This document shows, piece by piece, positions 290-28,088 of a stretch of 32,779 nucleotides of DNA. Position 1 is the first letter of the stretch. Every line of letters begins with the position of its first letter. The stretch is from Planctomycetota bacterium (GTDB taxonomy: Bacteria; Planctomycetota; UBA8108; UBA1146): contig DQQH01000199.1 of the NCBI GenBank assembly GCA_015664425.1, positions 1-32,779 of the forward strand. The letters are read 5' to 3'. The notes below the pieces were generated by a model, which was not told the origin of the DNA, searched no databases, and saw only the letters and a program-made list of their open reading frames with translations. The position numbers and the translations under genes were made by a program.

Positions 290-1714
290 GTGAGCGTTCG
301 AAACTCTCTTCTCGCCGTTCTGATGGCAGTGCCTTTCTCCGCAACTGGCTATTCCCAGCAGGCTCCCATCGAATTTGCTGCTCCGGTTTCGGTGGTGATG
401 GCGGACAAGGTCAATGCCGTCCGGATGGCGGACGTCGATTCCGATGGCCACCTCGACATCATCGCCTTGCAGGGGGAACCGTCACTCGTTTCGGGGATGT
501 TCGTTGCTCTCGGCGATGGCAACGGCAACTTCGATGCCCCCGTCTTCAACGCGATCTCCATCAACTGGCCCTGGGCGGTCGATGTCGGGGACATCAACGA
601 GGATGGAACCGTCGATGCGGTCGTTACCGATTTCCTGAGCGGGCAATTTGCCTATCTGGAAGGAAACGGCGACGGAACTTTCAGCGAACAGCCGAGGTTG
701 GTGCCCGGCTGGGGAGGCGGAAATCCGCAGGTGCAGGTCGCCGATATCGACGACGATGGGCACCTCGACGTGATCGCCGCCGATTTCTTCGGTTCGAAGC
801 TGCAGGTGGCATGGGGGACAGGGATCGATGATCCCCTGGCAGCGTTCGACGGCCTGGCGACGGTCCCGCTGACGGGATTTCCACTCAGCCTCGACATCGC
901 CGATCTCGATGGCGATGGCGACCTCGACCTGTGCTGTGGTTTCAATAGCGGCAGCGGCGGTGGGGTTGCGACCAGCCTCTACCAGGGGAACAGAACCTTC
1001 TCCGCCGAGGAGCGCTCGATCGGCGGGCTGTCCGAGTCTCACTGGTCGACGATGGCCATCGACCTCGACGGCGGATTTCCCGAGATCGTGACGGTCGACG
1101 AGGGTTTGGGAAGCCTTGGCATCTTCACACTGGCTGCAGGGATTCCCCAGCCCGGGATCCCGATCTTCACCGGATCGAATCAGCGCCACGTTGCCGGTGG
1201 GGATCTCGATCTCGATGGAGTCGCGGACCTGGTGATCAGGAACTTCTCCAGCGGCAGTTTCCTCATCTTGCAGGGTGTGGGCGCATTGAAATTCGTGGAG
1301 GTGTTGCTGATCGACGGACCGGTTGCGTTCTCGGGCCTGGAACTGGTAGATGTGAACGAGGATGGAAGCCTCGACATCGTCGCCGGAAACTACGACCAAT
1401 CGACCGTCTCCTACTACCTGAACCTGACGGCAAGCGGGGCTTTCATCCGCGGCGAACTCAACGGTGATGGCAACACCAACATCGCCGATGCCGTCTTTCT
1501 TCTGGCTTACCTGTTCAATGGCGGGCCCACTCCGGGTTGTTTGGATGCCGCCGACACCAACGATGATGGTGGGGTGAACATCTCCGATGCGGTGACCTTG
1601 CTGGCGGTTCTCTTCAACGGAGCCTCTCCCTTCCCGGAGCCTGTCGGGTCGTGCGGTCAGGACCCGACCGCTGACGCACTCGAGTGCGAAGATTCAGGAA
1701 GTTCCTGCCTGTGA
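290..1714 (+). CDS. Secreted FG-GAP/VCBS-repeat protein with C-terminal dockerin-like module
   Basis: Start re-called from 179 to GTG 290 (AAGGAG upstream; signal peptide MSVRNSLLAVLMAVPFSATGYSQQ). About seven D-x-D-x-D-G-x-x-D repeats (ADVDSDGHLD, GDINEDGTVD, ADIDDDGHLD, ADLDGDGDLD, VDVNEDGSLD...). C-term IRGELNGDGNTNIAD...ADTNDDGGVNISD...CGQDPTADALECEDSGSSCL. Confidence 0.9.
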   Translation: MSVRNSLLAVLMAVPFSATGYSQQAPIEFAAPVSVVMADKVNAVRMADVDSDGHLDIIALQGEPSLVSGMFVALGDGNGNFDAPVFNAISINWPWAVDVGDINEDGTVDAVVTDFLSGQFAYLEGNGDGTFSEQPRLVPGWGGGNPQVQVADIDDDGHLDVIAADFFGSKLQVAWGTGIDDPLAAFDGLATVPLTGFPLSLDIADLDGDGDLDLCCGFNSGSGGGVATSLYQGNRTFSAEERSIGGLSESHWSTMAIDLDGGFPEIVTVDEGLGSLGIFTLAAGIPQPGIPIFTGSNQRHVAGGDLDLDGVADLVIRNFSSGSFLILQGVGALKFVEVLLIDGPVAFSGLELVDVNEDGSLDIVAGNYDQSTVSYYLNLTASGAFIRGELNGDGNTNIADAVFLLAYLFNGGPTPGCLDAADTNDDGGVNISDAVTLLAVLFNGASPFPEPVGSCGQDPTADALECEDSGSSCL

Positions 1715-1794
1715 TGGCGATGACCGTCGCGGTGATGGAAGAGTAGGCAGTAAAGAGAGAGAAAAATAGAGACCAATTCGTTTCAGCAGCACCT

Positions 1795-1952
1795 CTCGCC
1801 CTCACGGGCGAGGTGATTTCAGAGCAGCAAGTTTTCCCTGAAATTCTAAGGCTCTCGGCCCTTCCCCGGGGGTAGGGCCTCTCGCCTGAGCGACGGTACG
1901 CCTGTAAAATGGAAGCGGCAGTATCAAGGGAGTGGCATGCTCCTTGAGCATG
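1795..1952 (+). promoter_or_regulatory. Structured 5' leader of the FG-GAP gene at 2027 (three hairpins)
   Basis: CTCGCCC-tcac-GGGCGAG (1795-1812); GGCCC-n13-GGGCC (1857-1879); CATGCTC-ctt-GAGCATG (1936-1952). Confidence 0.4.
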
Positions 1953-2026
1953 TTGGCCTCTTCCCGCCATTGTTGAGTTCGGCGGCGATGGAGACGGGTT
2001 TGGGCAGTGGAATCGGGGTTACCGAC

Positions 2027-3538
2027 ATGAAGATCACGCTGCTCCTCCTCACCCTGCTGTTATTGCCTCTGAAACTACCGGCACAGATGGGACCGTGCGC
2101 CGGGGTCGGCGATGGCAACTTTATCGATAGCGGTCAGCAACTGGGCAATTATTACAGCAGTACCATCGCCCTTGGCGATGTCGATGGCGACAGCGATCTC
2201 GACCTGATTGTGGCGAATTTTTCTTTACTGCCCAACAGGGTCTACACAAATGACGGAAACGGCCGATTCTCATTCACTGGTCAGTTGCTGGGATCCACGA
2301 GTAGTTTTGCGCTCGCCAGCGGTGATATCGACGGTGACAGCGATCTGGACATCGTTGTTGGCAACAACGGGCCAAACGTGGTCTACACCAATGACGGGAT
2401 CGGCAATTTCACCGATTCCGGTCAGGTTCTGGAAGCAAACGGCACCCATTCAATTGCTCTCGGTGATGTCGATAATGACTCTGACCTGGACATGGTTGTC
2501 GGAAACCACGGCGTGAATCAGGTTTTCACCAACGACGGAAACGGCATCTATTCCGACACCGGTCAGGAACTGGGTTCTTCATTCAGCACAGCCGTTGCCC
2601 TCGGCGACGTCGACGGTGACGGTGATCTTGACATCGTTGTGGGGAATCACGGCCCCCCTCATCCCAATCGTGTCTACATCAACAACGGCGGCGGCACCTT
2701 TACCGACAGCGGGCAGGAGTTGGGTACAAACCCCACCTGCTCCCTTACTCTTGGCGACATCGATGGGGATGGCGATCTCGATCTTGTCGTGGGAAACGAA
2801 GACAGTTTCAACCGCGTCTTGAGCAATGACGGTCAAGGCAACTTCACCGATTCTGGCCAGGAACTGGGAGAGAACGGCAAGTCTGTCGCCCTCGGTGATA
2901 TTGATTCAGACGGTGATCTTGACCTGGTCGTTGGCAATGGCGGTCCCAATCATGTCTACACCAATGACGGCAATGGGCTCTTCACCGACAGCGGGCAAAT
3001 ACTGGGATCTTCCTGGAGTTACTCGGTAGCCCTGGGCGATGTCGATAACGACGGTGATCTCGACATCGCTGTCGGGAATTTCAATTCCAACCACCTCTAC
3101 ATCAATGCGCCCGATGGTCCCAACGACTGCAATCAAAACGGTATCGCCGATGACTGTGATTTGACCGATCCGACATTCGACTGCGATGGTAATGGTATTC
3201 TGGATGTCTGCGAAATCGGACCGGCGACAGACACCAATGGCGACGGGATTCACGATAACTGCCAGGATTTCATCCGCGGCCAATGTAACAGCGACGGTGC
3301 TCTCGATGTCGCAGATGGAATCTTCATGCTCGGATACCTGTCAGGAGCGAATCTGCCGACTCCTTGCCTCTCCGCCTGCGACTTCAATGATGATGGCAAC
3401 ATCAATATCGCAGACCCAATCAACCTCTTTGCTTACCTCTTCAACGGCGGCCCCAGCCCACCGGCTCCTTTTCCCACGTGCGGTGTCGATCTGACAGTCG
3501 ACGTCTTCACTTGTGAAAATTATGGGAGGTGTCCTTGA
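2027..3538 (+). CDS. Secreted seven-repeat FG-GAP/VCBS (beta-propeller-like) protein with C-terminal dockerin-like module
   Basis: Start re-called to ATG 2027 (signal peptide MKITLLLLTLLLLPLKLPAQ). Seven tandem ~44-46 aa units of type TDSGQELG..SVALGDVDGDGDLDIVVGN..VYTNDGNG; then Ca-binding DCDGNGILDVCE repeats and a dockerin-like tail ending CGVDLTVDVFTCENYGRCP. Confidence 0.92.
   Translation: MKITLLLLTLLLLPLKLPAQMGPCAGVGDGNFIDSGQQLGNYYSSTIALGDVDGDSDLDLIVANFSLLPNRVYTNDGNGRFSFTGQLLGSTSSFALASGDIDGDSDLDIVVGNNGPNVVYTNDGIGNFTDSGQVLEANGTHSIALGDVDNDSDLDMVVGNHGVNQVFTNDGNGIYSDTGQELGSSFSTAVALGDVDGDGDLDIVVGNHGPPHPNRVYINNGGGTFTDSGQELGTNPTCSLTLGDIDGDGDLDLVVGNEDSFNRVLSNDGQGNFTDSGQELGENGKSVALGDIDSDGDLDLVVGNGGPNHVYTNDGNGLFTDSGQILGSSWSYSVALGDVDNDGDLDIAVGNFNSNHLYINAPDGPNDCNQNGIADDCDLTDPTFDCDGNGILDVCEIGPATDTNGDGIHDNCQDFIRGQCNSDGALDVADGIFMLGYLSGANLPTPCLSACDFNDDGNINIADPINLFAYLFNGGPSPPAPFPTCGVDLTVDVFTCENYGRCP
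2108..3112 (+). repeat. Seven degenerate ~135-140 bp coding repeats (FG-GAP/VCBS units)
   Basis: Recurring GGTGATGTCGATGGYGACGGTGATCTCGACATCGTTGT-like DNA matching repeated VALGDVDGDGDLDIVVGN peptide. Confidence 0.85.
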
Positions 3539-4671
3539 GAAAGCGATTTTTCATCCTTTCTATCTTGCTTCTTGCTCCGGTGGTCAACGCTCAGGATCCC
3601 GATTACTTGCTCTACATTCTCGACAGCGGGGCGCCGACCGATGCCAGCATCGATCTCACCGTCAGGCTCGATAACCTGGGGGAACTGGTTAGCGCCTACT
3701 CCTACGGGGTGTGCCACGATCCAGCTGTATTGCAACTCGATGATGCGACCGAGGTCGGGACCGATACCGCCGATGCCAATGGCGGCAATCCTCCCTGGTT
3801 TTTTTCCCTGAACGTTTATCCCGCCCCGGTTCCAGGGGAGTCCGCTGTTGCAGGTTGGAACATGGCAGCGGTGATTGACCTCTTCGGCCAGTTCTTTTTT
3901 CCACCTGCAATCGACTACACTCTTGGCGTTGGCACCTACACGGTTCTTGGAAGCGCCGGAACCTCAACGGTGGTGGAAACCTGCAATTCCGTGGGTGATC
4001 CGCCCTACAATGTCGTCCTCGAACTCTTCGGGAACATTGCTATTCCGACCCAGATCCCGGGAATTATTTCCATCGTGACCTGCGACTCTCTTCCCGACTG
4101 TGATGGAAATGGCGAGAACGACTACTGCGACATCGCAAATGGCGCCGGCGATTGCGATGGCGATGGGGAACTTGACAGCTGCGAAATCGCCAACGGCGCG
4201 CTCGATTGTGACTCCGATGGTGTTCCCGATCCTTGCCAGTTACAGGAAGGAGAGGAAGATTGCGACCAGAACGGGGTCCTCGATGCGTGCGATCTGGCCA
4301 ACCCCGACCTCGACTGCGACGGCAATGGCCTGCTGGATGGGTGTGAAATCGACCCTGGGAGTGATCAGAACGGCGATGGAATTCTCGACAGCTGCCAGGA
4401 TTTCATCCGCGGCGATTGCAACGCCATCGGCACCATCGACCTCGCCGATGCCATCTTCTTGCTCGGTTATCTCTTCGGGAGTTCAGGAGTGGTGTCGTGT
4501 GCCGACGCCTGCGACATCAACGACGACGGCGCCATCGATGTCGCCGATGCCATCTCAATCCTGTCGGCGCTCTTCTCCGGTGGCGAGCCTCCCGGCCAAC
4601 CCTTCCCCTTCTGCGGGCTCGACCCAACCGACGACACCCTCGAGTGCGAGGGTTTCGATAGTTGCGCGTGA
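3535..4671 (+). CDS. Secreted protein: cohesin-like N-terminal domain, thrombospondin-type-3/EF-hand-like repeats, dockerin-like C-term
   Basis: TTG 3535 overlaps the upstream TGA (TTGA) and sits 5 nt after GGGAGG; GTG 3529 is the alternative. Signal peptide LRKRFFILSILLLAPVVNAQ. DxDxDGxxDxC repeats x6; C-term CGLDPTDDTLECEGFDSCA. Confidence 0.9.
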   Translation: MRKRFFILSILLLAPVVNAQDPDYLLYILDSGAPTDASIDLTVRLDNLGELVSAYSYGVCHDPAVLQLDDATEVGTDTADANGGNPPWFFSLNVYPAPVPGESAVAGWNMAAVIDLFGQFFFPPAIDYTLGVGTYTVLGSAGTSTVVETCNSVGDPPYNVVLELFGNIAIPTQIPGIISIVTCDSLPDCDGNGENDYCDIANGAGDCDGDGELDSCEIANGALDCDSDGVPDPCQLQEGEEDCDQNGVLDACDLANPDLDCDGNGLLDGCEIDPGSDQNGDGILDSCQDFIRGDCNAIGTIDLADAIFLLGYLFGSSGVVSCADACDINDDGAIDVADAISILSALFSGGEPPGQPFPFCGLDPTDDTLECEGFDSCA

Positions 4672-4737
4672 ATCCTACCGTTACAGTTGTGTGGCCTCCG
4701 CTGGACCCGACCGGGCAGCAAGCCCCCCAAACGCTCC

Positions 4738-5949
4738 CTAGGCGAGGACTTCCTGTGCGAGTTTAAGGCGGTTGGCGATGTCGACCCCTTCGGGGCAGGC
4801 ACGGGTGGCGGCGGCGAAATCGACGCCGTCGATCTCGCGTTCGCCTGGCGACATCTTGCGGTAGAGGCGTTTGGCCTCCTCGGGCTCGTCGTAACACTCG
4901 TAGTACATCAAATAGCGAAGCGAGTCGGCGATGCGGGTGTCGGCGACGACGTGCGGCTGGCAGTACTGGCTGCAGCCCATGCAGGCGAAGCCGCTGGTAC
5001 ATGCGGCCAGGCGATTGAGCTGGTGAAAGTCGGCCATGCCGAGCTTGATCGGCGACCTGGCCGCGGCGACGTTTTCCTTGAGCAGTTCGAGGCTGTCCAT
5101 GTGGGAGACTGCGGAGTCGATGCGTTCGTCGGCCCAGACCGCCTTGAGCTTCGCCTGACCGAGGGTGAAATCCTTGGACTTGAACTTGATAACCTCCTCC
5201 TGCTCGGCAGGGACCGATCTCTGGGTCTTCATGGCGATCAGCCCGATCTTCGCCTTCTTGCAGGCGTCGATCGCACGGTTGAGTTCCTTGTCGCCGTACT
5301 GGCCAAAACTATAGCGGAACATGATCGCGTCGATTCCGCCGACCCTGGCGGCTTTGTTCATCAACTCGACGACGTTGCCGTCGTGGCATGAGAAGCCGAA
5401 GAAGTTGGTTTTCTTGGCCTTCTTCAGCCGTTCGCCCATCTGGAGGTAATCCTTGTCGAGGTACTTGGTGTCGTCGAGCATGTGCATGAAGAACAGGTCG
5501 AGGTGGTCAACCTCGAGTTGCCCCAGGCAGGTCTCCAGGTCGCGCTCGAAGCTGGCAACGTCGGCGCGGCGGCGACGGTGGGGTGCCTTCGAAGTGATCC
5601 ACACCTTGTCGCGGCCCACCTGCTTGACGAACGGGGCCAGCGTCTTGTGGCTCTGGCCGCTCGCGTAGACCAGGGCAGTGTCGAGGTAGTCGACGCCATC
5701 CTTGAATCCGCGGTGAAGCATCTTGTCGTAGGTGGGATCGAAGACCTGCGAGCAGCCAAATAGCAGGATCGGGATCGTCTTGCCGGTATCGCCCAGTTCC
5801 TTGCGAGGAACCCTGTCCAAAGGCTTGGCGGGGCCTGGCTCCTTGTCGGACTCCTGGGCACCGGCCAGCCCACTCATCGCTCCCAGGCCGGCGCCAGCGA
5901 GCATGGTCTTCTTCAGAAATTCCCGGCGACCGACATCGTTGCTGTCCAT
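4738..5949 (-). CDS. Tat-exported aldo/keto reductase with C-terminal Cys cluster
   Basis: ATG at 5949 preceded by AGGAGG on the minus strand; Tat motif RREFLKK; AKR signature GVDYLDTALVYASGQSHKTLAPFV..., DLFFMHMLDD; C-term CTSGFACMGCSQYCQ. Confidence 0.88.
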   Translation of the reverse strand: MDSNDVGRREFLKKTMLAGAGLGAMSGLAGAQESDKEPGPAKPLDRVPRKELGDTGKTIPILLFGCSQVFDPTYDKMLHRGFKDGVDYLDTALVYASGQSHKTLAPFVKQVGRDKVWITSKAPHRRRRADVASFERDLETCLGQLEVDHLDLFFMHMLDDTKYLDKDYLQMGERLKKAKKTNFFGFSCHDGNVVELMNKAARVGGIDAIMFRYSFGQYGDKELNRAIDACKKAKIGLIAMKTQRSVPAEQEEVIKFKSKDFTLGQAKLKAVWADERIDSAVSHMDSLELLKENVAAARSPIKLGMADFHQLNRLAACTSGFACMGCSQYCQPHVVADTRIADSLRYLMYYECYDEPEEAKRLYRKMSPGEREIDGVDFAAATRACPEGVDIANRLKLAQEVLA

Positions 5950-5975
5950 GTTTCCTCCTGGGACCATTGGTGATC

Positions 5976-7642
<1,667 letters not shown>

Positions 7643-7646
<4 letters not shown>

Positions 7647-8794
7647 AGGATCACCTTGAGGCGGCCGGTGTAGTCGACCCTGCCGCTGCCCTTGGCTTCG
7701 GACTTGTGGAGATACTCGGGCAACTCGTTGGGATCACGTCGGAGAAGGTTCTTGAATGCCCATGCGTCCTGAGCAACCGGGTCGAGGGACGCCATGACGA
7801 CGTCACCATTGACGACGTTCGAGGGATCGCCGCCAGTCGGTCCGTTTTCCATGAGAATCTTGGTGCCGTCGAGAATCGTCAAAGTCGGGCGAATCATGAT
7901 CGAGAGGTCCGAAACGATCTCGTGAATGTCCTGGTGGAACTGGCTGCGGCGTCCACCGAGCAGCCCGTACCAGTTCTTGATGCCCATCGAGGCATAACAA
8001 AGGTTGTGGTCCTTGACGGGTGCGACGCCAATCACCTTGTCGACGTTGGTGAACGGCCGGTGGAAGAACCACCATTCAGTGATCAGTGTGGCGCCCGGCG
8101 TGTTGAGCAGTTTGAAGGCGTTGGAGTCAGGCAAGTAGACGCGACCGCCCGCCTTTTCCGTCGCCTTGCGCAGGCCCGTCTTCATGAAGCAGTCGGCGGG
8201 TGACTCGATGGGGTTGTCGGCGACCCGTACCTCCTGGGCGCGGCAGTCGACGAGCAGCAAGTTGATCAGCGCCTCGATCAGCGCTGGCTGGCTGGTGGCA
8301 CCGAGCGCGGGGGCGCGATCGAAAGCGACGTTCGGCTTGACCAGGACGATGTCACCGGGTTTCACGTAATGTTTGATGCCACCGATGGCGTCGAGCGCCT
8401 TGCGAAGCATCTGTTCGGGGGTGCCGCCGCGGCCGATCCCGACGTCGGCGGTCTGGGTCACTGGCTTGGGCACCCTGAAATCGTTGAGGCGGACCGGCTT
8501 GAACCTGGGCTTGCTGCGCAGCCCCGTCGAGTCTTTGAGAGACAGGGGCCATTCCTTGGGCGCGAGGGCAAGGTAGCTGGTGGCGCCCAGGATCCCCGCC
8601 GCGGCGCCGATGTTTCGCAGGAAACTGCGGCGTTCCATCGTGCCCTTTACGTAGTCGGGTTTCTGGATCGGCTTGGTCTGGGGAGGCTCGCCGGTTCTGG
8701 GGGCCACCGGCTTGGGCTCAGCGGGTGTCGGTTTCGACTGTCCCTCGGGCTCGGCTGCATCTTCCGGGCCGGGGGGTTTTTCTGGCTCGCTCAT
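7643..8794 (-). CDS. DUF362 domain-containing protein with internal Tat/TM segment
   Basis: [18 protein letters not shown] Tat motif after a ~50-aa Pro/Glu/Lys-rich N-term; [76 protein letters not shown]. Confidence 0.85.
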
Positions 8795-8821
8795 CAGGCT
8801 CCCCTCCTCGCCTCCGTCATG

Positions 8822-12324: not shown

Positions 12325-12519
12325 CAGGATCGAAGCTAGCCGAAGGCCGAGTTTCGGCGAGTGATCGAGGAGAAGTGACGATCACCGTGCTAAATTGCTA
12401 GCAGAGCACCCGCGGTAGACTTTCTTTCCAGGTCATTATCCATGTCGGTACGCCCCTCGCTTCTGCGACTGCAAGGCAATAAAATGTAGGATATTTCAAT
12501 CGTCGCGTTTGGCATTTTT

Positions 12520-12549
12520 ATCGCCAGACTCCCTCCGGGGGAGGGCGAT
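12520..12549 (+). promoter_or_regulatory. Strong hairpin in the 5' leader of the cohesin/dockerin-like gene at 12587
   Basis: ATCGCC-aga-CTCCC-tccgg-GGGAG-GGCGAT: 11 bp in two helices with a 3-nt bulge, 37 nt upstream of ATG. Confidence 0.5.
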
Positions 12550-12586
12550 GGTGTGTTTTAGATCTGGAGAGTTCGGGAGTTTTCCG

Positions 12587-13396
12587 ATGAAGTTCCCCCT
12601 TTCTCTGCTTCTGTTCCTTCTCGCACTCGCCGCCGGTGAGTCCCCTGTGAGCGGACAGCCTGCCGCGGATTACGTAATGATCCTGGGAAGCGGTGCCGGC
12701 GCTCCATTGAGCACCGTGGATATAGTTGTGACCTTCGACAACAACGGCGCCAACATCGAAGGCTGGTCCTTCGGCGTCTGTTCCAATCCGGCTGAACTTG
12801 AAATTCTGGATGTCGCCGACGGAAGCACCACTGCCACCGTCAACAATGGATCTCCACCCTTCTTTCACGCTCTGAGTCTCTTTCCAGACGGCTGGAATGT
12901 GGGGGCGCTCATCAGTCCCTTCGCCAGCCCGGTGCTGCCTCCGGGCACCGGCTACGAGATGTACATCACCGTTTACTCCATCGTTGGTGAAGTGGGGACC
13001 ACATCGAACCTCGAATTCTGCGAGACACTTGGTAGCCCCCCTGTATCGACCGTCATCGTGTCGGGGGGGCAATCTTTCCTGCCGGAGTTGAACGGTGGAA
13101 CAATCGATATCCTGCAAATCGACAGCTACATCCGCGGAGATGTCTCTGGCGATGGCGCTCTCGACCTCGCTGATGCGGTCGAGATGTTGGGGTATCTCTT
13201 CATCGCCTTGCCCGCTCCCGGCTGCCTCGACAGCAGCGACGTCAACGACAGCGGTGCCATCGACGTCTCCGACGCGGTCTACCTGCTGACCTACATGTTC
13301 ACCGGCGGAATCGAACCACCAGCCCCATTCCCCTCCTGCGGCGCCGACGAGACCGACGATTCTATCGAGTGCGAGTTCTACCCCAGTTGCCCGTGA
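12587..13396 (+). CDS. Secreted cohesin-like + dockerin-like protein
   Basis: Start re-called to ATG 12587 (MKFPLSLLLFLLALAAGESPVSGQ). DYVMILGSGAGAPLSTVDIVVTFDNNGANIEGWSFGVCSNPAELEI...; C-term IRGDVSGDGALDLAD...SDVNDSGAIDVSD...CGADETDDSIECEFYPSCP. Confidence 0.88.
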   Translation: MKFPLSLLLFLLALAAGESPVSGQPAADYVMILGSGAGAPLSTVDIVVTFDNNGANIEGWSFGVCSNPAELEILDVADGSTTATVNNGSPPFFHALSLFPDGWNVGALISPFASPVLPPGTGYEMYITVYSIVGEVGTTSNLEFCETLGSPPVSTVIVSGGQSFLPELNGGTIDILQIDSYIRGDVSGDGALDLADAVEMLGYLFIALPAPGCLDSSDVNDSGAIDVSDAVYLLTYMFTGGIEPPAPFPSCGADETDDSIECEFYPSCP

Positions 13397-14898: not shown

Positions 14899-14978
14899 AG
14901 ATCCATCGATCGCCTGGAGGAAAAGACGCGATCCAGGGCCAGCCTGGTTTGCACCTCCAATTTCGTGGAGCGCAAAGG

Positions 14979-16412
14979 TCAGGCGATAATTTCCTTCACT
15001 ACCCTCGCCTTTTCGACCCCCGTGAGCCGAACGTCGAGTCCCTGGTACTGGACGGATAGACGTTCGTGGTCGATCCCGAGGAGGTGCAGCATGGTGGCAT
15101 GAAGGTCGCGGACGTGGACGACGTCCTCGACTGCGTTGTAGCCGAGGTCGTCGGTTGCACCGTGAGTGACTCCGCCCTGGATACCACCCCCAGCGAGGAA
15201 CATCGAGAACCCCTTGATGTGGTGGTCGCGGCCGGGATCGTCGCCACCGCCCTGGGACATCGGAGTGCGCCCGAATTCTCCGCCCCAGATGACAAGGGTG
15301 TCATCGAGCATCTTCCGCTGCTTGAGATCCTTGATGAGCGCTGCAGTCGGCTGATCGCAATAACCACAGCAGGTGGTCATGAACTTCTTCAATTCGCCAT
15401 GGTGATCCCAGCCACGGTGATAGAGGTGGATGAATCTCACGCCGCGTTCCGCCAGGCGCCGGGCGAGCAGGCAATTGCTTGCGAAGGTTCCGTCACCGGG
15501 TGTTGCCCCGTACATCGCCAGGGTCTCGGGGGACTCGTCGGAGATGTCGATCAACTCGGGAATCGAGGCCTGCATGCCAAAGGCGAGCTCGTACTGGGCG
15601 ATGCGGGAGTCGATCTCGGGATCGTGAGTTGTTCTGGCGCGCAGGCGGTTGAGATCGCGGACTGCGGCAATCAGATGCTCCTGGCGGTCGCGGCTGATGC
15701 CGGGAGGGTTAGTGACGTAGTGAACGGGATCCCCTGCCGAATGGAATTGCACTCCTCCCAGTTCGCTCGGGAGAAAGCCGCTAGACCATTGGCGCGAGGC
15801 GATGGGTTGTGGATTGCGTCCGCCCACGCTCGAGAGGACGACAAACCCCGGAAGATTCTCGCTCAACGAACCGAGACCATAGTTCACCCAGGAACCCATG
15901 CTCGGTCGATGGGGGATGATCGAACCGGAGTTCATGAAGGTGTGAGCGGGGTCGTGGTTGATCTGCTCGGTCACCATCGAACGGATGATGGCGATGTCGT
16001 CGGCGACGGTTGCGATGTGAGGGAGGTAACTGCTGATGACCTGGCCGCTCTTGCCATGGCGGCTGAAGGTGGCTCGTGGCCCCATGCAGCGCAGTTCCTT
16101 CCCCTGTAACTGGGCGATCGGCATCCCCCTGGTGAAGGATTCCGGCATCGGTTCGCCATCGAGGGCGGCGAGCTGAGGCTTCTCGTCAAAGGTCTCGAGA
16201 TGGCTGGGACCACCGGCCATGCACAGGAAGATCACCCGTTTCGCCCTGGGGACGAGGTTGGGAGGGAGCAAGAGAGACGTTGACGCACCAGCGCTCGGAG
16301 GCCACCACTGACTGAGCGCGGCGGCGCCAATACCGAGCGACAGGGAACCGAGGAACTGCCTGCGACTCACGCACTCGCACTGCGATTGGATGTCGTTCAG
16401 GTTTTCATTCAC
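14979..16412 (-). CDS. DUF1501 domain-containing protein (Tat signal)
   Basis: GTG 16412 overlaps the upstream stop by 8 nt; SRRQFLGSLSLGIGAAALS Tat; VIFLCMAGGPSHLETFDEKPQLAALDGEPMPES; VIWGGEFGRTPMSQGGGDDPGRDHHIKGFSMFLAGGGI. Confidence 0.93.
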   Translation of the reverse strand: MNENLNDIQSQCECVSRRQFLGSLSLGIGAAALSQWWPPSAGASTSLLLPPNLVPRAKRVIFLCMAGGPSHLETFDEKPQLAALDGEPMPESFTRGMPIAQLQGKELRCMGPRATFSRHGKSGQVISSYLPHIATVADDIAIIRSMVTEQINHDPAHTFMNSGSIIPHRPSMGSWVNYGLGSLSENLPGFVVLSSVGGRNPQPIASRQWSSGFLPSELGGVQFHSAGDPVHYVTNPPGISRDRQEHLIAAVRDLNRLRARTTHDPEIDSRIAQYELAFGMQASIPELIDISDESPETLAMYGATPGDGTFASNCLLARRLAERGVRFIHLYHRGWDHHGELKKFMTTCCGYCDQPTAALIKDLKQRKMLDDTLVIWGGEFGRTPMSQGGGDDPGRDHHIKGFSMFLAGGGIQGGVTHGATDDLGYNAVEDVVHVRDLHATMLHLLGIDHERLSVQYQGLDVRLTGVEKARVVKEIIA

Positions 16413-19400
16413 GGGTAATCGTCTCGTGAAGGTTGAGTATTGCCCGGGTGACTTCGGTCCAGGCGGCAAGTTCAACGGGTTCGATGGATTTCGGTACTGG
16501 CGTCCGACCAACGGCCAGGAGTGCCTTGGCCTCGATGGGATTCTCCTTGAAGTGCTCCCGGCTCTCTGCCAGCAATTCGGCGAGGACGGCGATCTCCTCC
16601 GCGGTCGGCTGGCGACAAGTTGCCTTTTTCATCGCAAATGCGATCGATTCCTGGTCGCTCTTTGGTACTCGAGCGAGGATGTGCTGAGCGAAGCCGCGTG
16701 CCGCCTCGACGAAAGTCGGGTCGTTGAGAAGAACCAGCGCAGCCAGTGGTGTGTTCGATGTGGTTCGTTGCGCTGCACAATCCTCACGGGTGGGGGCGTC
16801 GAAAGCGAGAAACATCGGGTGCAGGTACTGGCGTTGCCAGTGCACGTAAACCCCGCGTCGCCACTGCTGGGCGTTCATGTCCGGATGGTACTTTCGAGGG
16901 GGGAAATTTAGGTGGCGGTAATAATGCTCCGGTTGTGGGGGTTTTACGCTCGGTCCGCCAGGCTGATCGACGAGGAGACCGCTGACTGCCAGTAGGGTGT
17001 CGCGCACCATCTCGGCAGGAAGACGGAATCGTGCCTGGTGAGAGTAGAGAAGGTTCTCCGGGTCGAGTTCGGTGCTGCGCTCATCCGGGATGGAGGACTG
17101 CCGGTAGGTTCGAGAATGCACCAGTCTCCGGAAGAGAGCCTTGATGTCCCAGCCGGAATCGATGAACTCGAGAGCGAGGTGATCGAGCAACTCCGGATGG
17201 GTCGGCGGGCGACCCTGGCCACCGAAATCCTCCACCGATGGGCACAGACCCGTCCCGAAGAGAAGCGACCACACCCTGTTCACGAACACTCGAGCAGTCA
17301 GGGAGCCTACCCCGCCCGCTGACTCATCGGTGACGAGCCAGCGTGCGAGGTCGAGACGACTTGCACGCCCTTCGCCAGCGAGTTTGCCAAGAAAGGCGGG
17401 AATCGCCGGTTCGACGATGGCGCCGGAGGAGTCGAGCCAGTTCCCCCGGGGGAGAATTCGCACCTGCCGGGGAGAATCGAGTGAGCGGGTGTAGAGAGTG
17501 AGCGGAAGGGACTTTTCGATGGCGGAGATCTCTGTCTCGAGGCTGGCCTTGGTGGCGCGCAGGGCGATCACATCTTCGGACTGGTTTGCCTGGTAGTCCC
17601 GAAGTTGTGCCCTTTGATCTGGGTTACGGTGGCGAACGGGGATTGAGAGTGTCTCGATCACCGCAGCAGGTGCCGCCTGGACATTTTCGACGCCACACCT
17701 GTCCCAGTAGGTGGTTCCGCCAAACTGTGTGAACGCCACACCGTTGACGATGGTGCCGGGGCTGATGCCGATCTCGGCAAAGGGAACCTCTAAGCGAGTC
17801 CACTGTCCTGAAGGCGGCAAAGCTCCCAACCTTCTGTACCCTGCCCAGCTCTTATCCTTGCGGCCGTAGCCGATTTCATCGCCGCCCCAGACAGCGCGGT
17901 GTTCCCAGTTCCCCGAGGTGTTGCACTGCAGCATCAATGCCTTTGATGACGATTCTCCGAGCAGGTAGACCCACGCAAAGAGCAGATCTCCCTCCTCAAC
18001 TGTGATGCGCTTCTCGGTGGTCTCGTGGGTGTAGTGCTGGACCAGACCGTCACTCATCTGTTTGCGGTAGAGTTCGCCGCTGTGGGGTGGGATGGATTCT
18101 TCACGGACGAAGTTCCAGCGGCCGCTGCTTTCCCCACCTGTATCGAGACGATCATCGACCCACGTCGATTGGTGTGCTTCTCCGGACGCGATCAACGCCC
18201 GCAGGTCCGCTTCCCAGCGCTCCTGCAGGGGCTCGAGATCAGCGATGGCGGCCTCGATCTGATCTTCGGCTTCATCGATCCGGTGGCTGAGTTTTTTCGT
18301 GCTTTCGCGGGCTTCGTCGGTCACCACCCGCAATTCGGGAGCCCGGCGGGTGGGGGTGGTGTTGAGGCCGCCGTAAGGATTGCGGATATGGTCCTCATCA
18401 TCGACGTCGGCGAAGAATGCACCAAAGGAGTAGAAATCGCGCATCGTGAAGGGGTCGTACTTGTGGTCGTGGCACTGAGCGCAGCCGAGAGTGGCACCCA
18501 TCCAGACCTCGGCGAGGTTCCTGACGCGGTCAGCCATGTAGATGGCCCGGTACTCTCCGAGTTGCAATCCACCCTCGTGGGTAGTCTGGAGCAAACGGTT
18601 GTAGCAACTGGCGATCAGCTGTTCCTGGTTCGGGTTCTCGAGCAGGTCACCGGCAATCTGTTCGATGGTGAAACGATCGAAGGGCATGTTGGCGTTGAAC
18701 GCAGCGATGACCCAGTCACGATAAGGCCAGACCCGGTGCTCCTGGTCGCCATGATAGCCGACGGTGTCAGCATAGCGCACGAGGTCGAGCCAGCTGCTGG
18801 TCAGGCGTTCACCGAAATGCCGAGATGCGAGCAGTCGATCGACAGCGTCGGAGTACGCGCTGTCGCCGGAATCCGAAAGGAATCGATCGACATCCTCGGT
18901 AGCGGGCGGCAGCCCGGTGAGGTCGTAACTGAGGCGCCGCAACAATGTCACGGCATCGGTATCGGGCACCGGCCGCAGTCCTTCGGCGAGCAGGCGCTCG
19001 AGGATGAAGTGATCGATGTCGGTGGCTGCCCAGTCGCTATCGCCGATGGCGGGAACCGGGGTTCTGGCGCCAGGGAGGTAGGCCCAGTGACCGGTGTAGT
19101 CTGCTCCTTCATCGATCCATCGACCGAGGATTTCGATCTGCTCCAGATTCAGTTCGTTGTTTTCCTCGGGAGGTGGCATCGGATCTTCCGGGTCGGTGAT
19201 CATCAGCCACATCGCGCTGCGTTTTCGGCTTCCTGGAACGATCGCCGTGGCGCCGTCCTCGAGTTCGCTGGTGGCGGACTCGAAATCGACCAGGCTCAAT
19301 CCGGCCTTGCGCGATTCCTCGTTGGGGCCGTGGCATGGGAAGCAGTGTTCGGAGAGGATCGGCCGGACAACGCGAGCGAAGTCGACAGGGGTATCGGCAG

Positions 19401-19497
19401 TCCCTGTGGAAATTGTGATCGGAGATGAGACTGCGAAAAGGACCGGGATGGCGGCCGAAGTGAGCAGGAGAGCGAGGCAGGCAGGTGGAATTTTCAT
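16405..19497 (-). CDS. PSCyt1 / DUF1549 / DUF1553 (PSD1) domain protein
   Basis: VDFARVVRPILSEHCFPCHGPNEESRKAGLSL (planctomycete cytochrome C motif); RLLASRHFGERLTSSWLDLVRYADTVGYHGDQ; ARVFVNRVWSLLFGTGLCPSVEDFGGQGRPPTHPELLDHLA; TPLAALVLLNDPTFVEAARGFA. Confidence 0.95.
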   Translation of the reverse strand: MKIPPACLALLLTSAAIPVLFAVSSPITISTGTADTPVDFARVVRPILSEHCFPCHGPNEESRKAGLSLVDFESATSELEDGATAIVPGSRKRSAMWLMITDPEDPMPPPEENNELNLEQIEILGRWIDEGADYTGHWAYLPGARTPVPAIGDSDWAATDIDHFILERLLAEGLRPVPDTDAVTLLRRLSYDLTGLPPATEDVDRFLSDSGDSAYSDAVDRLLASRHFGERLTSSWLDLVRYADTVGYHGDQEHRVWPYRDWVIAAFNANMPFDRFTIEQIAGDLLENPNQEQLIASCYNRLLQTTHEGGLQLGEYRAIYMADRVRNLAEVWMGATLGCAQCHDHKYDPFTMRDFYSFGAFFADVDDEDHIRNPYGGLNTTPTRRAPELRVVTDEARESTKKLSHRIDEAEDQIEAAIADLEPLQERWEADLRALIASGEAHQSTWVDDRLDTGGESSGRWNFVREESIPPHSGELYRKQMSDGLVQHYTHETTEKRITVEEGDLLFAWVYLLGESSSKALMLQCNTSGNWEHRAVWGGDEIGYGRKDKSWAGYRRLGALPPSGQWTRLEVPFAEIGISPGTIVNGVAFTQFGGTTYWDRCGVENVQAAPAAVIETLSIPVRHRNPDQRAQLRDYQANQSEDVIALRATKASLETEISAIEKSLPLTLYTRSLDSPRQVRILPRGNWLDSSGAIVEPAIPAFLGKLAGEGRASRLDLARWLVTDESAGGVGSLTARVFVNRVWSLLFGTGLCPSVEDFGGQGRPPTHPELLDHLALEFIDSGWDIKALFRRLVHSRTYRQSSIPDERSTELDPENLLYSHQARFRLPAEMVRDTLLAVSGLLVDQPGGPSVKPPQPEHYYRHLNFPPRKYHPDMNAQQWRRGVYVHWQRQYLHPMFLAFDAPTREDCAAQRTTSNTPLAALVLLNDPTFVEAARGFAQHILARVPKSDQESIAFAMKKATCRQPTAEEIAVLAELLAESREHFKENPIEAKALLAVGRTPVPKSIEPVELAAWTEVTRAILNLHETITRE

Positions 19498-19709
19498 CGC
19501 TGCGCCCGACTCTAACAGGCCCGCGATGGGCGAGCAATGCGGCTGCGATCAGTTCGCGGCCGGGCGAATTACTTTCTGGCCACCGACCTCCATTCCACCG
19601 GGTGTTTCGACGGTTGACGAGGGAAGTAGCGTTCGAGGGGGGAGCGGAATACAGGGCACCGAGAAGGGGAATTTCTTTCCAGGGCTCTGAATATCGACCT
19701 ACCTCGTGC

Positions 19710-22040
19710 CTATGGGCAGGCTGGGAAACTGGTGCAGCCGAGGCCTCCCGAAGTCGGATCGAGCCCGCACTCCGGGAAGGGGATGGCCGGCAAGGGCCCG
19801 ATGCCGAAGACCCCGCCGAGGGCCGCGATCGCATCGGCGATGTCCGCGGACTCATCGTCGTTGACGTCGAGGGTGTTCAGACACGCTGGAGCCGGCCCGC
19901 CGAAGAGATATTCGATGATGAAAACCGGGTCGGAGACGTCGAAGGAACCATCGGAATTGCCGTCTCCACGGACCAGCCACGGTCCTTCGCACTCATCGGG
20001 GATGCCGTTGGAGTTGACGTCAGTGCTTGTCCCAGAGGATATATCGCAGCCGTCGAGGACGCCGTTTGTGTTGCAGTCCTCGGCAGTGCCAGAGTCGAGT
20101 TCGCATTCGTCGAGTACTCCATCGGAATTGCAATCAGTCGAAGTCCCGGAAGCGAGATCTTGAGTGTCAGGGATTCCGTTGTTGTTGCAGTCGGGAGGGG
20201 GCCCTTTGGAGATGGTGAAGACATCTTCGGTGGCACCGTTTTCCCTGACCATTGTCACGTTCAGGGTCTGGCCAGCGAAATCGAGGACAAGGGAACCACT
20301 GACCGTTTCGGAGATGAACATCGCCGGGTGGTCGAGAGACCCGCTGCCGGGTTGACCGCTGCTTCCCATGACGACGTAAACGGCGCCCTGGTTCGGCGAG
20401 GGAGTTTTTTCGTAGGCGCCGTTACCGAGAGGGTCGCCATTTCCCCCATCGACCAGATGAAAGGCGGGATTCCAGGTTCCGCTGGTTCCGTAGTGACCGT
20501 CGATGAGGAAGGACCTCTCATACACGTGGCTGTGCCCGGCGAGAGTCAGGTCGACACCTGCAGCCTCGAGAATCGGAAGGGCGTTCTCGCGCATGTCTCG
20601 CATCCGTCCCCCGCTGTCGGCCTCGTTATCGGAATCGTGAGTCCCCTTGGTGTATGGGGGGTGGTGGAAGAAGGCGACGATCCAGTCCTGAGCGGTACTG
20701 GCGAGATCGAGTTCGAGCCAGGAGAGCATCGGGCCAGCAGGAGTGAGGTTGGAACCCTCGGAATCGAGGCAGATGATGTGAGCATTGCCAAAATCGAAGG
20801 AATAATAAGCTTCGGTCCCCGAGGCTAGACCTCCTCCTTCTCCAGCGGTCGGATTGCTGACGAGCCCGTAATAGACGGAAGGAAAGGTTTCGTGGTTCCC
20901 ACGGGTGGATGCGAAGGGTGTCTGGATCAGGAGATCGGGGTACATGTCGAAGACCGCCGCCTGGTACTGGCTCTCAGTTCCGCTCAGGTAGGCGTTGTCG
21001 CCGAGCATCAGCCAGAGATCGGTGTAGGTCGATCCTGCGAAGGCATAGTAAGCGTCTCGAACGGCGTACTGTGACGATCCTACCGTCCCGCAATCGCCGA
21101 TGACCCAGACTCGAAAGGGAGTGCTGGTTCCCGCCGTCGGCGAGGTGAAGAAGAAGTGATCGATGCTGTCACCGGCAAGATCCTGACTGTCCGTGCCGAC
21201 GGCGTAGTAGTACCTGGTGTCGGGCTGAAGCCCACTCAGGGTGATTTCATGATCGACAGTGCTTGTGGCACTGGTGATCGAACTGGGCAGAGCTCCAGCG
21301 CTTGTGCCAAAACGTACGCCGCTACTTGTAGTAACGTCGGTTCGCCAGCGGACGACGATGGAGGTGGGTGTGACCATCTGAAGGTAGGGTCCACGCAGCA
21401 CCGCCGCCGGAGGTGGTGCGCCTTCATTGATCACCACCGTGAGGAGCGGCCTTTCACTCGTTTGTGTGGCCTCGCTGCTGCGGACCTCCGCGCCGTCGAC
21501 TCCTCCTGTAGGTCGGATGATCCAGCCGCGGTTGGCGGAGGGGGCCGTGACCCAGGATTCGATGCTGCTGGTGACGTTGAGGACCTGGGTACCTAGCGCT
21601 CCCACGGCAGAACCGACCACACCCCCGTAATCATTGGATTGCACTCCTGGATTCGCACCAAAGCTGTTGTAGGTGGTGGGAGAAGGTGGAGACCAGTCGA
21701 CTGCCACCTCGTTGATGGTTGCGGTGTTTCCAGGATTGATCACGCTGAAGGTAAGGGAGGCGGAGGTGATCACGTCGGTCGGCTTGATCTGCCCCGGCAG
21801 GGTTCCGAAGACGTCGTCGAATCGGATGAGGAGAAAGTTCTGCCCGCCGCCGTCGGAGCCATCCCATTCGAGGATGGTGTTGCCGTCGTGATCGGCATTT
21901 CCGACCGCGCCCTGGAGCCACGTATCGGTGGTTCCGTTGTAGGCGGAGGCTCCCTCCTGAAAGGTGAGGGTATCAGCGATCAGAACGGGAGTGACAAAAA
22001 GAAACATGACCTGGAGGTGCAGAAATTTCCTCAGGAGCAT
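19710..22040 (-). CDS. Secreted purple-acid-phosphatase-like metallophosphoesterase with N-terminal DNRLRE/CBM-like domain and C-terminal dockerin-like module
   Basis: Start re-called to ATG 22040 (MLLRKFLHLQVMFLFVTPVLIA). FRVWVIGDCGTVG, LMLGDNAYLSGTESQYQ, RGNHETF, AFFHHPPYTKGTHDSD, LAGHSHVYERS; fn3-like PTSIVVRWRTD; DCNNNGIPD repeats; C-term CGLDPTSGGLGCTSFPACP. Confidence 0.9.
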   Translation of the reverse strand: MLLRKFLHLQVMFLFVTPVLIADTLTFQEGASAYNGTTDTWLQGAVGNADHDGNTILEWDGSDGGGQNFLLIRFDDVFGTLPGQIKPTDVITSASLTFSVINPGNTATINEVAVDWSPPSPTTYNSFGANPGVQSNDYGGVVGSAVGALGTQVLNVTSSIESWVTAPSANRGWIIRPTGGVDGAEVRSSEATQTSERPLLTVVINEGAPPPAAVLRGPYLQMVTPTSIVVRWRTDVTTSSGVRFGTSAGALPSSITSATSTVDHEITLSGLQPDTRYYYAVGTDSQDLAGDSIDHFFFTSPTAGTSTPFRVWVIGDCGTVGSSQYAVRDAYYAFAGSTYTDLWLMLGDNAYLSGTESQYQAAVFDMYPDLLIQTPFASTRGNHETFPSVYYGLVSNPTAGEGGGLASGTEAYYSFDFGNAHIICLDSEGSNLTPAGPMLSWLELDLASTAQDWIVAFFHHPPYTKGTHDSDNEADSGGRMRDMRENALPILEAAGVDLTLAGHSHVYERSFLIDGHYGTSGTWNPAFHLVDGGNGDPLGNGAYEKTPSPNQGAVYVVMGSSGQPGSGSLDHPAMFISETVSGSLVLDFAGQTLNVTMVRENGATEDVFTISKGPPPDCNNNGIPDTQDLASGTSTDCNSDGVLDECELDSGTAEDCNTNGVLDGCDISSGTSTDVNSNGIPDECEGPWLVRGDGNSDGSFDVSDPVFIIEYLFGGPAPACLNTLDVNDDESADIADAIAALGGVFGIGPLPAIPFPECGLDPTSGGLGCTSFPACP

Positions 22041-22392
22041 GGCGGGCCCCCTCCTCGTTGAACAATGTGCCAGAAACTCGTGGAGATGATACCTCTCACA
22101 ACCAATCCTAAGAATGCACACGAGTTCGACCGCAGTGGCAGACTTTACTTTCGCTGGAGGAAGTTAGGGGAACTGGCCGATGGAAGGGGCAATGGTTTTG
22201 ATAAATAAACCAAATACCTGACCGAGATGCATGAACCGGGGCGTTAGTGGTGCTGGAGAAACTTGTGGCGGCATGGAAGATGGAGTGTAAACATGAAGAC
22301 CCTGCCAGAAGTGTGATTTACAGGATGCGTTGTATCTTTCTCGTATGGCTTACCCAGGGGAGCCTCGGTTGCGAGAACTCCGGAGGATGCCG

Positions 22393-23205
22393 ATGAGAAG
22401 CGTGATTTTCCTCCCCCTGCTCGTCCTCGTTGTGGCGATGTTTGCTGGCCAGGTGAACGGACAGCCCAACCCCGATTATCAGTTCATCCTTGGAAGCGGA
22501 TCTGTCGCACCGGGGAGCACGGTGGAGATTGCTGTCGTCTTCGACAACAACGGTGGAAACGTCCAGGGCTGGTCTTGGGGCGTCTGTTCTGACCCAAGCG
22601 CGGTGCTGGTCGAGGCTGTCGCTTATGGAAATACCACGGCCACCGCCAATAATGGTGCACCGCCCGATTTCTACGAATTGAACCTGTTCCCGGATGGCTG
22701 GACCGTCGGGGCGGTTATCAGCTTCGTCGGATCGGCTATTCTGCCCCCAGGCACCGGCTACGAGCTGAACGTTGCCACCTACTCGCCCGTTGGCGCGTTG
22801 GGAACGATCGCGACCATCGACTTTTGCGGCCAACTCGGGAATCCTCCATGGCTAGTTGTCGTCGTCGTTGGCGGTATGTCGTTCACTCCCGTTCAGAACG
22901 GGGGAACGATCACGGTCGAGCAGGTCGACAGCTTCATCCGTGGCCATGTCAACGGCGACAGTGGTTTCAATATCGCCGACGTCGTCACGCTTCTCGGCTA
23001 TCTTTTCAACAATTTTCCCACGCCGGGCTGTCTCGATGCAAGCGATGGCAACGACGATGGCAGCGTCAATCTGGCGGACGCCATCACACTGTTCAATACC
23101 CTCTTCGTGCCGGGGAGTCCTGCAATTCCCCCACCTTCCTCAACCTGCGGCGTTGACCCTACCGATGACACACTCGACTGCGGAAGTTCAGCTGGATGTC
23201 CATGA
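22393..23205 (+). CDS. Secreted cohesin-like + dockerin-like protein
   Basis: ATG 22393, 6 nt after GGAGG; MRSVIFLPLLVLVVAMFAGQVNGQ; DYQFILGSGSVAPGSTVEIAVVFDNNGGNVQGWSWGVCSDPSAVLV...; C-term CGVDPTDDTLDCGSSAGCP. Confidence 0.88.
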   Translation: MRSVIFLPLLVLVVAMFAGQVNGQPNPDYQFILGSGSVAPGSTVEIAVVFDNNGGNVQGWSWGVCSDPSAVLVEAVAYGNTTATANNGAPPDFYELNLFPDGWTVGAVISFVGSAILPPGTGYELNVATYSPVGALGTIATIDFCGQLGNPPWLVVVVVGGMSFTPVQNGGTITVEQVDSFIRGHVNGDSGFNIADVVTLLGYLFNNFPTPGCLDASDGNDDGSVNLADAITLFNTLFVPGSPAIPPPSSTCGVDPTDDTLDCGSSAGCP

Positions 23206-24050
23206 ACACTCAAATATCAGCTTCCAGGAGAATGGCCACGCTATCGGTGATTTCTGGTTTCATCCTGGCAGTGGTGATCACAATTCCGATCGGAGCCCAG
23301 AGCGGCAGCGATTTCGTTCTGGCTCTATCGGGGACTTACGATGCGGCGGAGAACATCCTCCTTGTCGATGTCTCCATCGAGAACAACGGCGGCGACATGC
23401 AGGGCTTCAACATCGATGTTTGCCACGACGAGGGCATTCTCGACCCGAAGGCCATCTTCTACGGCCCCGAGATCCAGGCACTCAACGGCGGCAGTGGACC
23501 CGCTTTCATCTTTTCCTATATCGACGCCCCAGGTGGCATCGTCTACGGCGTGGTCTTCAGCGGTTTCGGTGGTAACGAGGTCCTCCCTATCGGCTTCTAC
23601 AGGCAACTCTTCCAGATCCACTACGACCTGGTCGCAGGTGTGACGATCGACACGGAATTGTGTTTCTGCAACATCCCGCCCTGTAACACGGGAAACTGCT
23701 CGGTTGCAGAGACAATCATTGTTATTGGCGGGCAGTCCTACCCCCCTGAGTTGAACTGCTTCGATGTCACAAGCGGTGATTTCCTGCGTGGCGATGCCAA
23801 CGCTGACGGCACTATCAACATCGCCGATCCCATCTTTTCCCTCAGTTATCTTTTCAGTCAGGGGCTCGAACCGACATGTCTTGAGGCGGCGAACGCCAAC
23901 AATGACACCGGGATCGACCTGGGTGATGCGCTCTTCTTGCTCAATTACATCAACGGCATGGGGCCTGCGCCTCCGGCACCGTTTCCTGTTTGTGGTGTCG
24001 ACCCTGCCGGCGCGGTCTTTGGCTGCGGCAATTATGACGCCTGCCCCTGA
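23202..24050 (+). CDS. Secreted cohesin-like + dockerin-like protein (diverged paralogue)
   Basis: ATG 23202 overlaps the previous stop (ATGA); ATG 23196 is the alternative. DFVLALSGTYDAAENILLVDVSIENNGGDMQGFNIDVCHDEGILD; C-term CGVDPAGAVFGCGNYDACP. Confidence 0.85.
   Translation: MNTQISASRRMATLSVISGFILAVVITIPIGAQSGSDFVLALSGTYDAAENILLVDVSIENNGGDMQGFNIDVCHDEGILDPKAIFYGPEIQALNGGSGPAFIFSYIDAPGGIVYGVVFSGFGGNEVLPIGFYRQLFQIHYDLVAGVTIDTELCFCNIPPCNTGNCSVAETIIVIGGQSYPPELNCFDVTSGDFLRGDANADGTINIADPIFSLSYLFSQGLEPTCLEAANANNDTGIDLGDALFLLNYINGMGPAPPAPFPVCGVDPAGAVFGCGNYDACP

Positions 24051-25282: not shown

Positions 25283-28088
<2,806 letters not shown>

What the first reader, a model, noticed from the sequence alone, without database searches (positions are those of the whole stretch)
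290..24050. Seven secreted proteins share a dockerin-like C-terminal module ending in an invariant C-x10-C-x5/6-C-x-COOH tail
Seen directly. Proteins at 290, 2027, 3535, 12587, 19710(-), 22393 and 23202 end respectively in CGQDPTADALECEDSGSSCL, CGVDLTVDVFTCENYGRCP, CGLDPTDDTLECEGFDSCA, CGADETDDSIECEFYPSCP, CGLDPTSGGLGCTSFPACP, CGVDPTDDTLDCGSSAGCP and CGVDPAGAVFGCGNYDACP. C2-C3 spacing is exactly 10 in all seven, C3-C4 is 5 or 6, and each protein stops exactly one residue after the last Cys. Upstream lie two Ca loops (RGDxNxDGxxxxAD and xDxNDDGxxxxxD) with a fourth conserved Cys between them (e.g. PGCLDAAD). Module spans are 1442-1711, 3269-3535, 4402-4668, 13127-13393, 19713-19979, 22933-23202 and 23781-24047. 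The rest of these proteins differ (propeller, phosphatase, cohesin-like). A portable module fixed at the extreme C-terminus suggests a sorting, anchoring or assembly tag. Classical type I dockerins have duplicated Ca loops but not, to my knowledge, this Cys tail.
Basis: partly seen in the sequence, partly recalled or inferred. Interest (0 to 1): 0.87.

Follow-up and report, generated by a model that had tools for sequence, protein, structure and literature searches.

The report
Disulfide-stapled dockerins with matching cohesins
Seven secreted proteins in this window end in a protein "plug" (a dockerin held together by disulfide bonds); the same genome carries about 125 such plugs and about 70 matching "sockets" (cohesins), so this whole class of uncultured planctomycetes probably builds a large snap-together protein network outside the cell that shows no sign of being for digesting cellulose.

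Summary
In detail: seven C-terminal ~88-aa modules lie at the stated coordinates with the stated Cys spacing. They are 7 of ~125 in the host MAG, so not chance. The module folds as a type I dockerin (AlphaFold pLDDT 95; all 31 convincing PDB matches are dockerins) plus a ~25-aa Cys tail. The tail is not invariant, and the position is strongly but not strictly C-terminal: 111 of 117, with five of the six exceptions N-terminal. That, plus absence of sortase and T9SS tails in all 29 class genomes and of exosortase in 24, argues against a cleaved sorting tag. The "cohesin-like" domains of four window proteins are cohesins by fold. The MAG has ~70; all 44 complete cohesin proteins also carry the module. 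All 29 class genomes carry both domains in number; no genome sampled elsewhere in the phylum had both. Best reading: a disulfide-stapled dockerin-cohesin self-assembly system displaying propellers, redox proteins, proteases and lectins, with no glycoside hydrolases seen. Binding is inferred, not shown. Closest precedent: the hypothetical "planctosome" (2019).

The parts
1442..1711 (+). Cys-tailed dockerin module, C-terminal of an FG-GAP propeller protein (ORF 179-1714)
   Evidence: Pfam Dockerin_1 above cut-off
3269..3535 (+). Cys-tailed dockerin module with the optional third Cys pair (RGQC...CLSAC), C-terminal of an FG-GAP protein (ORF 1937-3538)
4402..4668 (+). Cys-tailed dockerin module with the optional third Cys pair (RGDC...CADAC), C-terminal of a cohesin protein (ORF 3529-4671); AlphaFold model m4727cdca35b0
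13127..13393 (+). Cys-tailed dockerin module, C-terminal of a cohesin protein (ORF 12509-13396)
19713..19979 (-). Cys-tailed dockerin module, C-terminal of a purple acid phosphatase-like protein (ORF 19710-22121)
22933..23202 (+). Cys-tailed dockerin module, C-terminal of a cohesin protein (ORF 22330-23205)
23781..24047 (+). Cys-tailed dockerin module, C-terminal of a cohesin protein (ORF 23196-24050, overlaps the previous ORF by 10 bp)
3607..4068 (+). cohesin domain, in the same protein as the module at 4402
   Evidence: E 4e-42
12671..13105 (+). cohesin domain; modelled together with its module (mbd3dbf917520, pLDDT 95)
22480..22914 (+). cohesin domain
   Evidence: E 7e-54
23316..23771 (+). 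cohesin domain
   Evidence: E 3e-38
4096..4366 (+). five TSP3-like Cys/Asp repeats (DCDxNGxxDxC, 18-aa period) between cohesin and module
   Evidence: approximate extent; similar repeats precede the modules at 3269 and 19713

Best explanation
The module is a type I dockerin (two Ca-binding F-hand repeats with internal two-fold symmetry) followed by a ~25-residue tail stapled back onto the domain by disulfides: C1-C3 and C2-C4, with an optional third pair tying loop 1 to loop 2. It works as a plug. Its sockets are the cohesin domains encoded in the same genome, 1-3 per protein. Because every complete cohesin protein also carries the plug, these proteins can join head to tail and branch into an extracellular network, onto which ~70 other secreted proteins (FG-GAP propellers, cytochrome peroxidases, plastocyanins, metalloproteases, lectins, phosphatases, hydrolases) clip. 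Export would be by signal peptide, then probably a secretin-based (type II) system. SHOWN by computation: dockerin fold, cohesin fold, copy numbers, positions, Cys coupling, class-wide co-occurrence, gene arrays, lack of known C-terminal sorting enzymes. INFERRED: dockerin-cohesin binding, polymerisation, formation of the disulfides, extracellular location.
For: Dockerin fold: profile hits cellulosomal dockerins in PDB sequences (2y3n E 7e-8). AlphaFold model pLDDT 95, pTM 0.85; the 31 best Foldseek matches are all dockerins, probability 0.92-1.00, though E-values are only 0.006-0.3 for so small a domain. Repeat symmetry: 45% identity at a 33-residue shift against 7-8% at neighbouring shifts. 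Cohesin fold: model of cohesin plus module pLDDT 95; the 50 best PDB matches shown are all cohesins or cohesin-containing chains, best E 2e-9, TM by target ~0.8; PF00963 hits only module-bearing proteins in the MAG. Numbers: 125-126 modules and 69-70 cohesins in a 2.2-Mb MAG; 44 of 44 complete cohesin proteins carry the module. Arrays of cohesin(1-3)-module genes in relatives, up to 10 per 20 kb. Co-occurrence: 29 of 29 class genomes have both; outside the class, 39 of 363 have module hits, 4 have cohesin hits, none have both. Disulfides: Ca-Cb p = 8e-23 and C2-C4 p = 2e-15 in the MAG, repeated in a second set (2e-19, 6e-14); C1 and C3 lost together; in both models strand/bridge residues fall on C1 and C3. 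Diverse passengers without glycoside hydrolases. Signal-peptide-like N-termini in 91 of 108; secretins in 29 of 29.
Against: No binding data, and no complex prediction could be run. Co-occurrence is at the level of one clade, so it is phylogenetically not independent. No cohesin protein with an obvious membrane or wall anchor was found, so how the network is fixed to the cell is unknown. In some families cohesin counts are low (8-23 against 78 to 150 or more modules), though the model was built from the window's own genome and may miss divergent ones. Disulfides are inferred from co-variation and DSSP bridges, not from coordinates.
Confidence: 0.72

Rival explanations
1. C-terminal sorting tag: the module is recognised by a dedicated transport or processing machine that delivers the protein to the surface, like T9SS CTDs, PEP-CTERM or LPXTG; the cohesin-like domains are ordinary adhesin domains.
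For: 111 of 117 closed ORFs end in the module, usually one residue after the last Cys; same bias in named relatives, 118 of 128.
Against: N-terminal and internal copies with Cys tails, and proteins with two modules. No sortase or T9SS tail in 29 of 29 genomes; exosortase in 5 of 29. The fold is a dockerin and the cohesin fold is present and co-expanded.
Confidence: 0.11
2. The module is a Ca-binding stability or adhesion domain that docks onto something other than cohesin (polysaccharide, outer-membrane protein), and the cohesins bind other partners.
For: Many dockerins and cohesins outside cellulosomes have no proven partner (discussed for archaea in PMC9012536, and for Omnitrophota in PMC10066038). 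Ordinary dockerins without cohesin hits occur elsewhere in this phylum.
Against: Co-expansion and physical linkage of both domains in the same proteins throughout the class.
Confidence: 0.14
3. Canonical cellulosome-like machine for polysaccharide degradation.
For: Cohesin and dockerin domains and multi-cohesin proteins are the defining parts of cellulosomes.
Against: No glycoside hydrolase or cellulose-binding family among the Pfam families shown for 64 module proteins scanned in three sets (56 of 58 families shown) nor among the 25 commonest of the larger scan; passengers are mostly propellers, redox proteins, proteases, lectins and esterases.
Confidence: 0.03

Closest known systems
'Planctosome' of freshwater Nemodlikiaceae (Planctomycetes), hypothetical (PMC6461901)
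   Same: Planctomycete non-cellulolytic cohesin-dockerin complex with P-domains, TSP3 repeats and M12B/M14 peptidases; also only inferred from genomes.
   Different: A simple system of a few proteins with an anchor (lamin-tail domain) and an adaptor; no Cys tail, expansion to 100 or more copies or class-wide conservation is described in the passages read.
Cellulosome of Pseudobacteroides cellulosolvens (PMC5590126)
   Same: Cohesin-dockerin assembly; comparable scale: 78 cohesins in 31 scaffoldins and 212 dockerin ORFs, called the most intricate known.
   Different: Passengers are carbohydrate-degrading enzymes; 15 of its scaffoldins bear dockerins, whereas here 44 of 44 complete cohesin proteins do. 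One relative here (G264) has 122 cohesin matches and at least 150 module matches.
ANME archaea and Candidatus Stygibacter (Cloacimonadota) cohesin-dockerin proteins (PMC9012536, PMC8542988)
   Same: Scaffoldin-like proteins with one dockerin and up to five cohesins (ANME); C-terminal dockerins on proteases (Stygibacter); not cellulolytic in the classical sense.
   Different: Other phyla; Stygibacter's scaffoldin is surface-attached by a C-terminal CTD; no Cys tail reported in the passages read.
Dockerin 'intramolecular clasp' of cellulosomal type I dockerins (Slutzki 2013, as cited in PMC4728124)
   Same: N- and C-terminal ends of the dockerin are held together for stability (Tyr-5/Pro-66 stacking).
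   Different: Here the tail is held covalently by inferred disulfides and is longer.

Membership tests
Dockerin type I (PF00404) | two duplicated Ca-binding loop-helix (F-hand) repeats | tested here: met
   Both loops conserved, repeat identity 45% at shift 33; AlphaFold helices 14-24 and 47-58
Dockerin type I (PF00404) | match to the curated Pfam model | tested here: inconclusive
   1 of 7 window proteins above cut-off; 5 more at E 0.003-0.01, below it; 1 not matched; 11 of 69 MAG passengers at E<=1e-4
Dockerin type I (PF00404) | dockerin tertiary fold | tested here: met
   31 best PDB matches are all dockerins; sequence profile hits PDB dockerins
Dockerin type I (PF00404) | Ca-dependent binding to a cohesin | not testable with these tools
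   No complex prediction or wet experiment available
Cohesin (PF00963), partner domain | cohesin jelly-roll fold | tested here: met
   50 best PDB matches shown are cohesins, TM by target up to 0.83
Cohesin (PF00963), partner domain | match to the curated Pfam model | tested here: inconclusive
   4 matches in the MAG, 1 above cut-off
Cellulosome | multi-cohesin scaffoldins | tested here: met
   16 MAG proteins with 2-3 cohesins; arrays in relatives
Cellulosome | dockerin-borne glycoside hydrolases and carbohydrate-binding modules | tested here: not met
   None among the Pfam families shown for the module proteins
Cellulosome | cell-anchoring scaffoldin | tested here: inconclusive
   All 44 complete cohesin proteins carry the module; no anchor recognised
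T9SS C-terminal domain (TIGR04183) | matching C-terminal tail present | tested here: not met
   0 of 29 class genomes
Sortase (LPXTG-type) sorting | sortase present | tested here: not met
   0 of 29 class genomes
PEP-CTERM/exosortase sorting | exosortase present where the module is | tested here: not met
   5 of 29 class genomes; 0 of 16 of the window's family, all of which carry the modules

The most novel reading that the evidence does not exclude
A whole class of Planctomycetota covers its cells with a self-polymerising, Ca-dependent cohesin-dockerin coat made rugged by disulfide-stapled dockerins. It would serve as a general display platform for the secreted proteome (redox, protease, lectin, propeller) and be larger than any known cellulosome in some members.
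Probability: 0.35. Interest if true: 0.82.

Novelty: new variant of a known kind. Interest (0 to 1): 0.64.

Why it matters
Cohesin-dockerin assembly is known mainly from cellulose-digesting anaerobes. Here both halves are amplified to record or near-record numbers in every genome held of one planctomycete class, with no sign of cellulose digestion and with a covalently stapled dockerin not described in the papers found. That would give a concrete, testable answer to what the secreted proteins of these uncultured planctomycetes are attached to. It would also supply disulfide-stabilised plug-and-socket pairs of practical use, and place ~120 proteins per genome, most of them below Pfam's cut-off, in one system.

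Tried and rejected
The search for related loci with alignment A1 failed because no stretch was conserved enough; a consensus sequence was used instead. NCBIfam has no matching family for the module. Known C-terminal sorting systems were tested and rejected. Weak module hits outside the class were read one by one in ten genomes: most are ordinary Cys-less dockerins, one or two followed by a PEP-CTERM-like end; Cys-tailed copies appear in G124 and G103, a partial one in G155, and a Cys-less tail variant in G115. Records titled Proteobacteria, Bacillota, Eisenbacteria and Omnitrophota may be mislabelled or mixed bins; not pursued. The review on non-cellulosomal cohesins and dockerins (PMC3035643) is not held. 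The first register scan for the internal repeat used the wrong shift range, corrected.
Full report
WHAT WAS CHECKED. The seven modules are present at the stated coordinates, all in frame and all ending one residue after the last Cys; C2-C3 is 10 and C3-C4 is 5-6 in all seven. The window lies in a 2.22-Mb, 293-contig MAG (G000, 82% complete).

HOW CONSTANT IS IT. I fetched the contigs with matches and built an iterated HMM: 125 domains in 120 ORFs. Of 117 ORFs with a stop (one ordinary dockerin excluded), 111 have the module within 12 residues of the C-terminus. The six others have it in the N-terminal part (a penicillin amidase-like protein, a DUF1800 protein, a di-haem oxidoreductase, an alpha/beta hydrolase and one not scanned on its own) or internally, and four proteins carry two modules. 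In 80 loci from named relatives, 118 are C-terminal and 10 are not.

DISULFIDES. Cys presence is coupled in pairs. In 114 non-redundant modules of the MAG, Ca (RGDC) and Cb (CLDAC) occur together in 33, singly in 5 and neither in 76 (p 8e-23); C2 and C4 together in 93, singly in 5, neither in 16 (p 2e-15). C1 and C3 are nearly always present and are lost together. A second set of 121 modules from relatives gives the same result (2e-19, 6e-14). I conclude three disulfides, one optional.

WHAT THE MODULE IS. It is a dockerin. Evidence: sequence profile against PDB (2y3n 7e-8), weak Pfam Dockerin_1 matches, two similar Ca-loop/helix repeats (45% identity at shift 33), and a model with pLDDT 95 and pTM 0.85 whose 31 best PDB matches are all dockerins. 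The Cys tail is an addition; known type I dockerins hold their ends together by ring stacking, the 'intramolecular clasp' (PMC4728124). The tail looks like a covalent clasp (inference).

ITS LIKELY PARTNER. Pfam Cohesin finds four places in the MAG, all in module-bearing proteins. A profile of these domains finds 70 in the MAG. A model of cohesin plus module (33-sequence alignment, pLDDT 95) matches only cohesins and cohesin-containing chains among the 50 best PDB hits shown (E 2e-9, TM by target ~0.8). All 44 complete cohesin proteins in the fetched contigs also carry the module: 28 with one cohesin, 11 with two, 5 with three. In relatives, up to ten such genes lie within 20 kb, and in several genomes the array adjoins a ~1700-aa Big_5/FG-GAP/TIG protein that also ends in the module.

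DISTRIBUTION. Among 392 genomes of the phylum, the module is found in all 29 of the class and in 39 of 363 others, mostly one to a few weak hits; cohesins are found in all 29 and in only four others, none of which has a module hit. Within the class, module counts are 61 to at least 150 (150 scored per genome; up to 791 first-look candidates) and cohesins 8-122. Outside the class, most weak hits are plain dockerins without the tail. This is one clade, so the co-occurrence is not statistically independent. Named relatives are mostly uncultured Planctomycetota MAGs.

PASSENGERS. Pfam families on module proteins of the MAG: FG-GAP propellers, proprotein convertase P-domains, PKD, cytochrome c peroxidases, plastocyanin, MtrC/MtrF-like cytochrome, M12B metalloprotease, lectins, arylsulfotransferase, sulfatase, phosphodiesterase, esterases; no glycoside hydrolase among those shown. 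Signal-peptide-like N-termini in 91 of 108 by a simple hydropathy rule. Secretins in all 29 genomes.

MECHANISM. Shown by computation: folds, counts, positions, Cys coupling, co-occurrence, arrays. Inferred: the stapled dockerins plug into the cohesins; because cohesin proteins carry plugs themselves, they can chain and branch into an extracellular network that carries the other module proteins. A C-terminal sorting tag is the main named rival; N-terminal copies and absent sorting enzymes argue against it. What anchors the network to the cell is not known.

COMPARISON. Non-cellulolytic cohesin-dockerin systems are already known or proposed: the 'planctosome' of freshwater Nemodlikiaceae (PMC6461901), ANME archaea (PMC9012536) and Cloacimonadota (PMC8542988). 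The largest described system, P. cellulosolvens, has 78 cohesins and 212 dockerin ORFs (PMC5590126). New here, as far as the held literature shows: the Cys-stapled dockerin, the class-wide amplification, and cohesin proteins that all carry their own dockerin. Subscription papers were not searchable, so earlier description cannot be excluded.

VERDICT. A real, conserved, large candidate assembly system; new variant of a known kind.

Noticed in passing
window 1850-3535(+), 3517-4668(+), 19713-22163(-); L017, L061: TSP3-like Cys/Asp repeats (DCDxNGxxDxC, ~18-aa period) sit directly before the module in 6 of 120 module ORFs but in only 1 of 1048 other ORFs of 200 aa or more; the planctosome anchor is also described with TSP3 repeats.
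   Followed up: partly
window 25276-25427, gene 25272-28088(-): A multicopper oxidase-like protein ends in a ~50-residue Asp/Glu run encoded by a (TCG)n array.
   Followed up: no
window 24032-25579(-) and 31345-32685(-): Two SCO1/SenC-cytochrome c fusion paralogues ~6 kb apart.
   Followed up: no
window 32695-32779: Perfect 12-bp tandem repeat CGTTGCCGCCGC x7 at the contig end.
   Followed up: no
L178, L179, L180: Family f35 of the same phylum has a single cohesin-like domain in a ~320-380-aa protein without any module, with a shared ending like NPGATSNFTNAITLYFH.
   Followed up: partly
L182, L191, L198 (G115): Dockerins that keep the tail (PFPxxGxDPTPDxL) but lack all the Cys together, consistent with paired disulfides.
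   Followed up: partly
L171, L172, L173, L174, L175; own contig C264 (L064): Conserved array of cohesin-module genes beside a ~1700-aa Big_5/FG-GAP/TIG protein ending in the module.
   Followed up: partly
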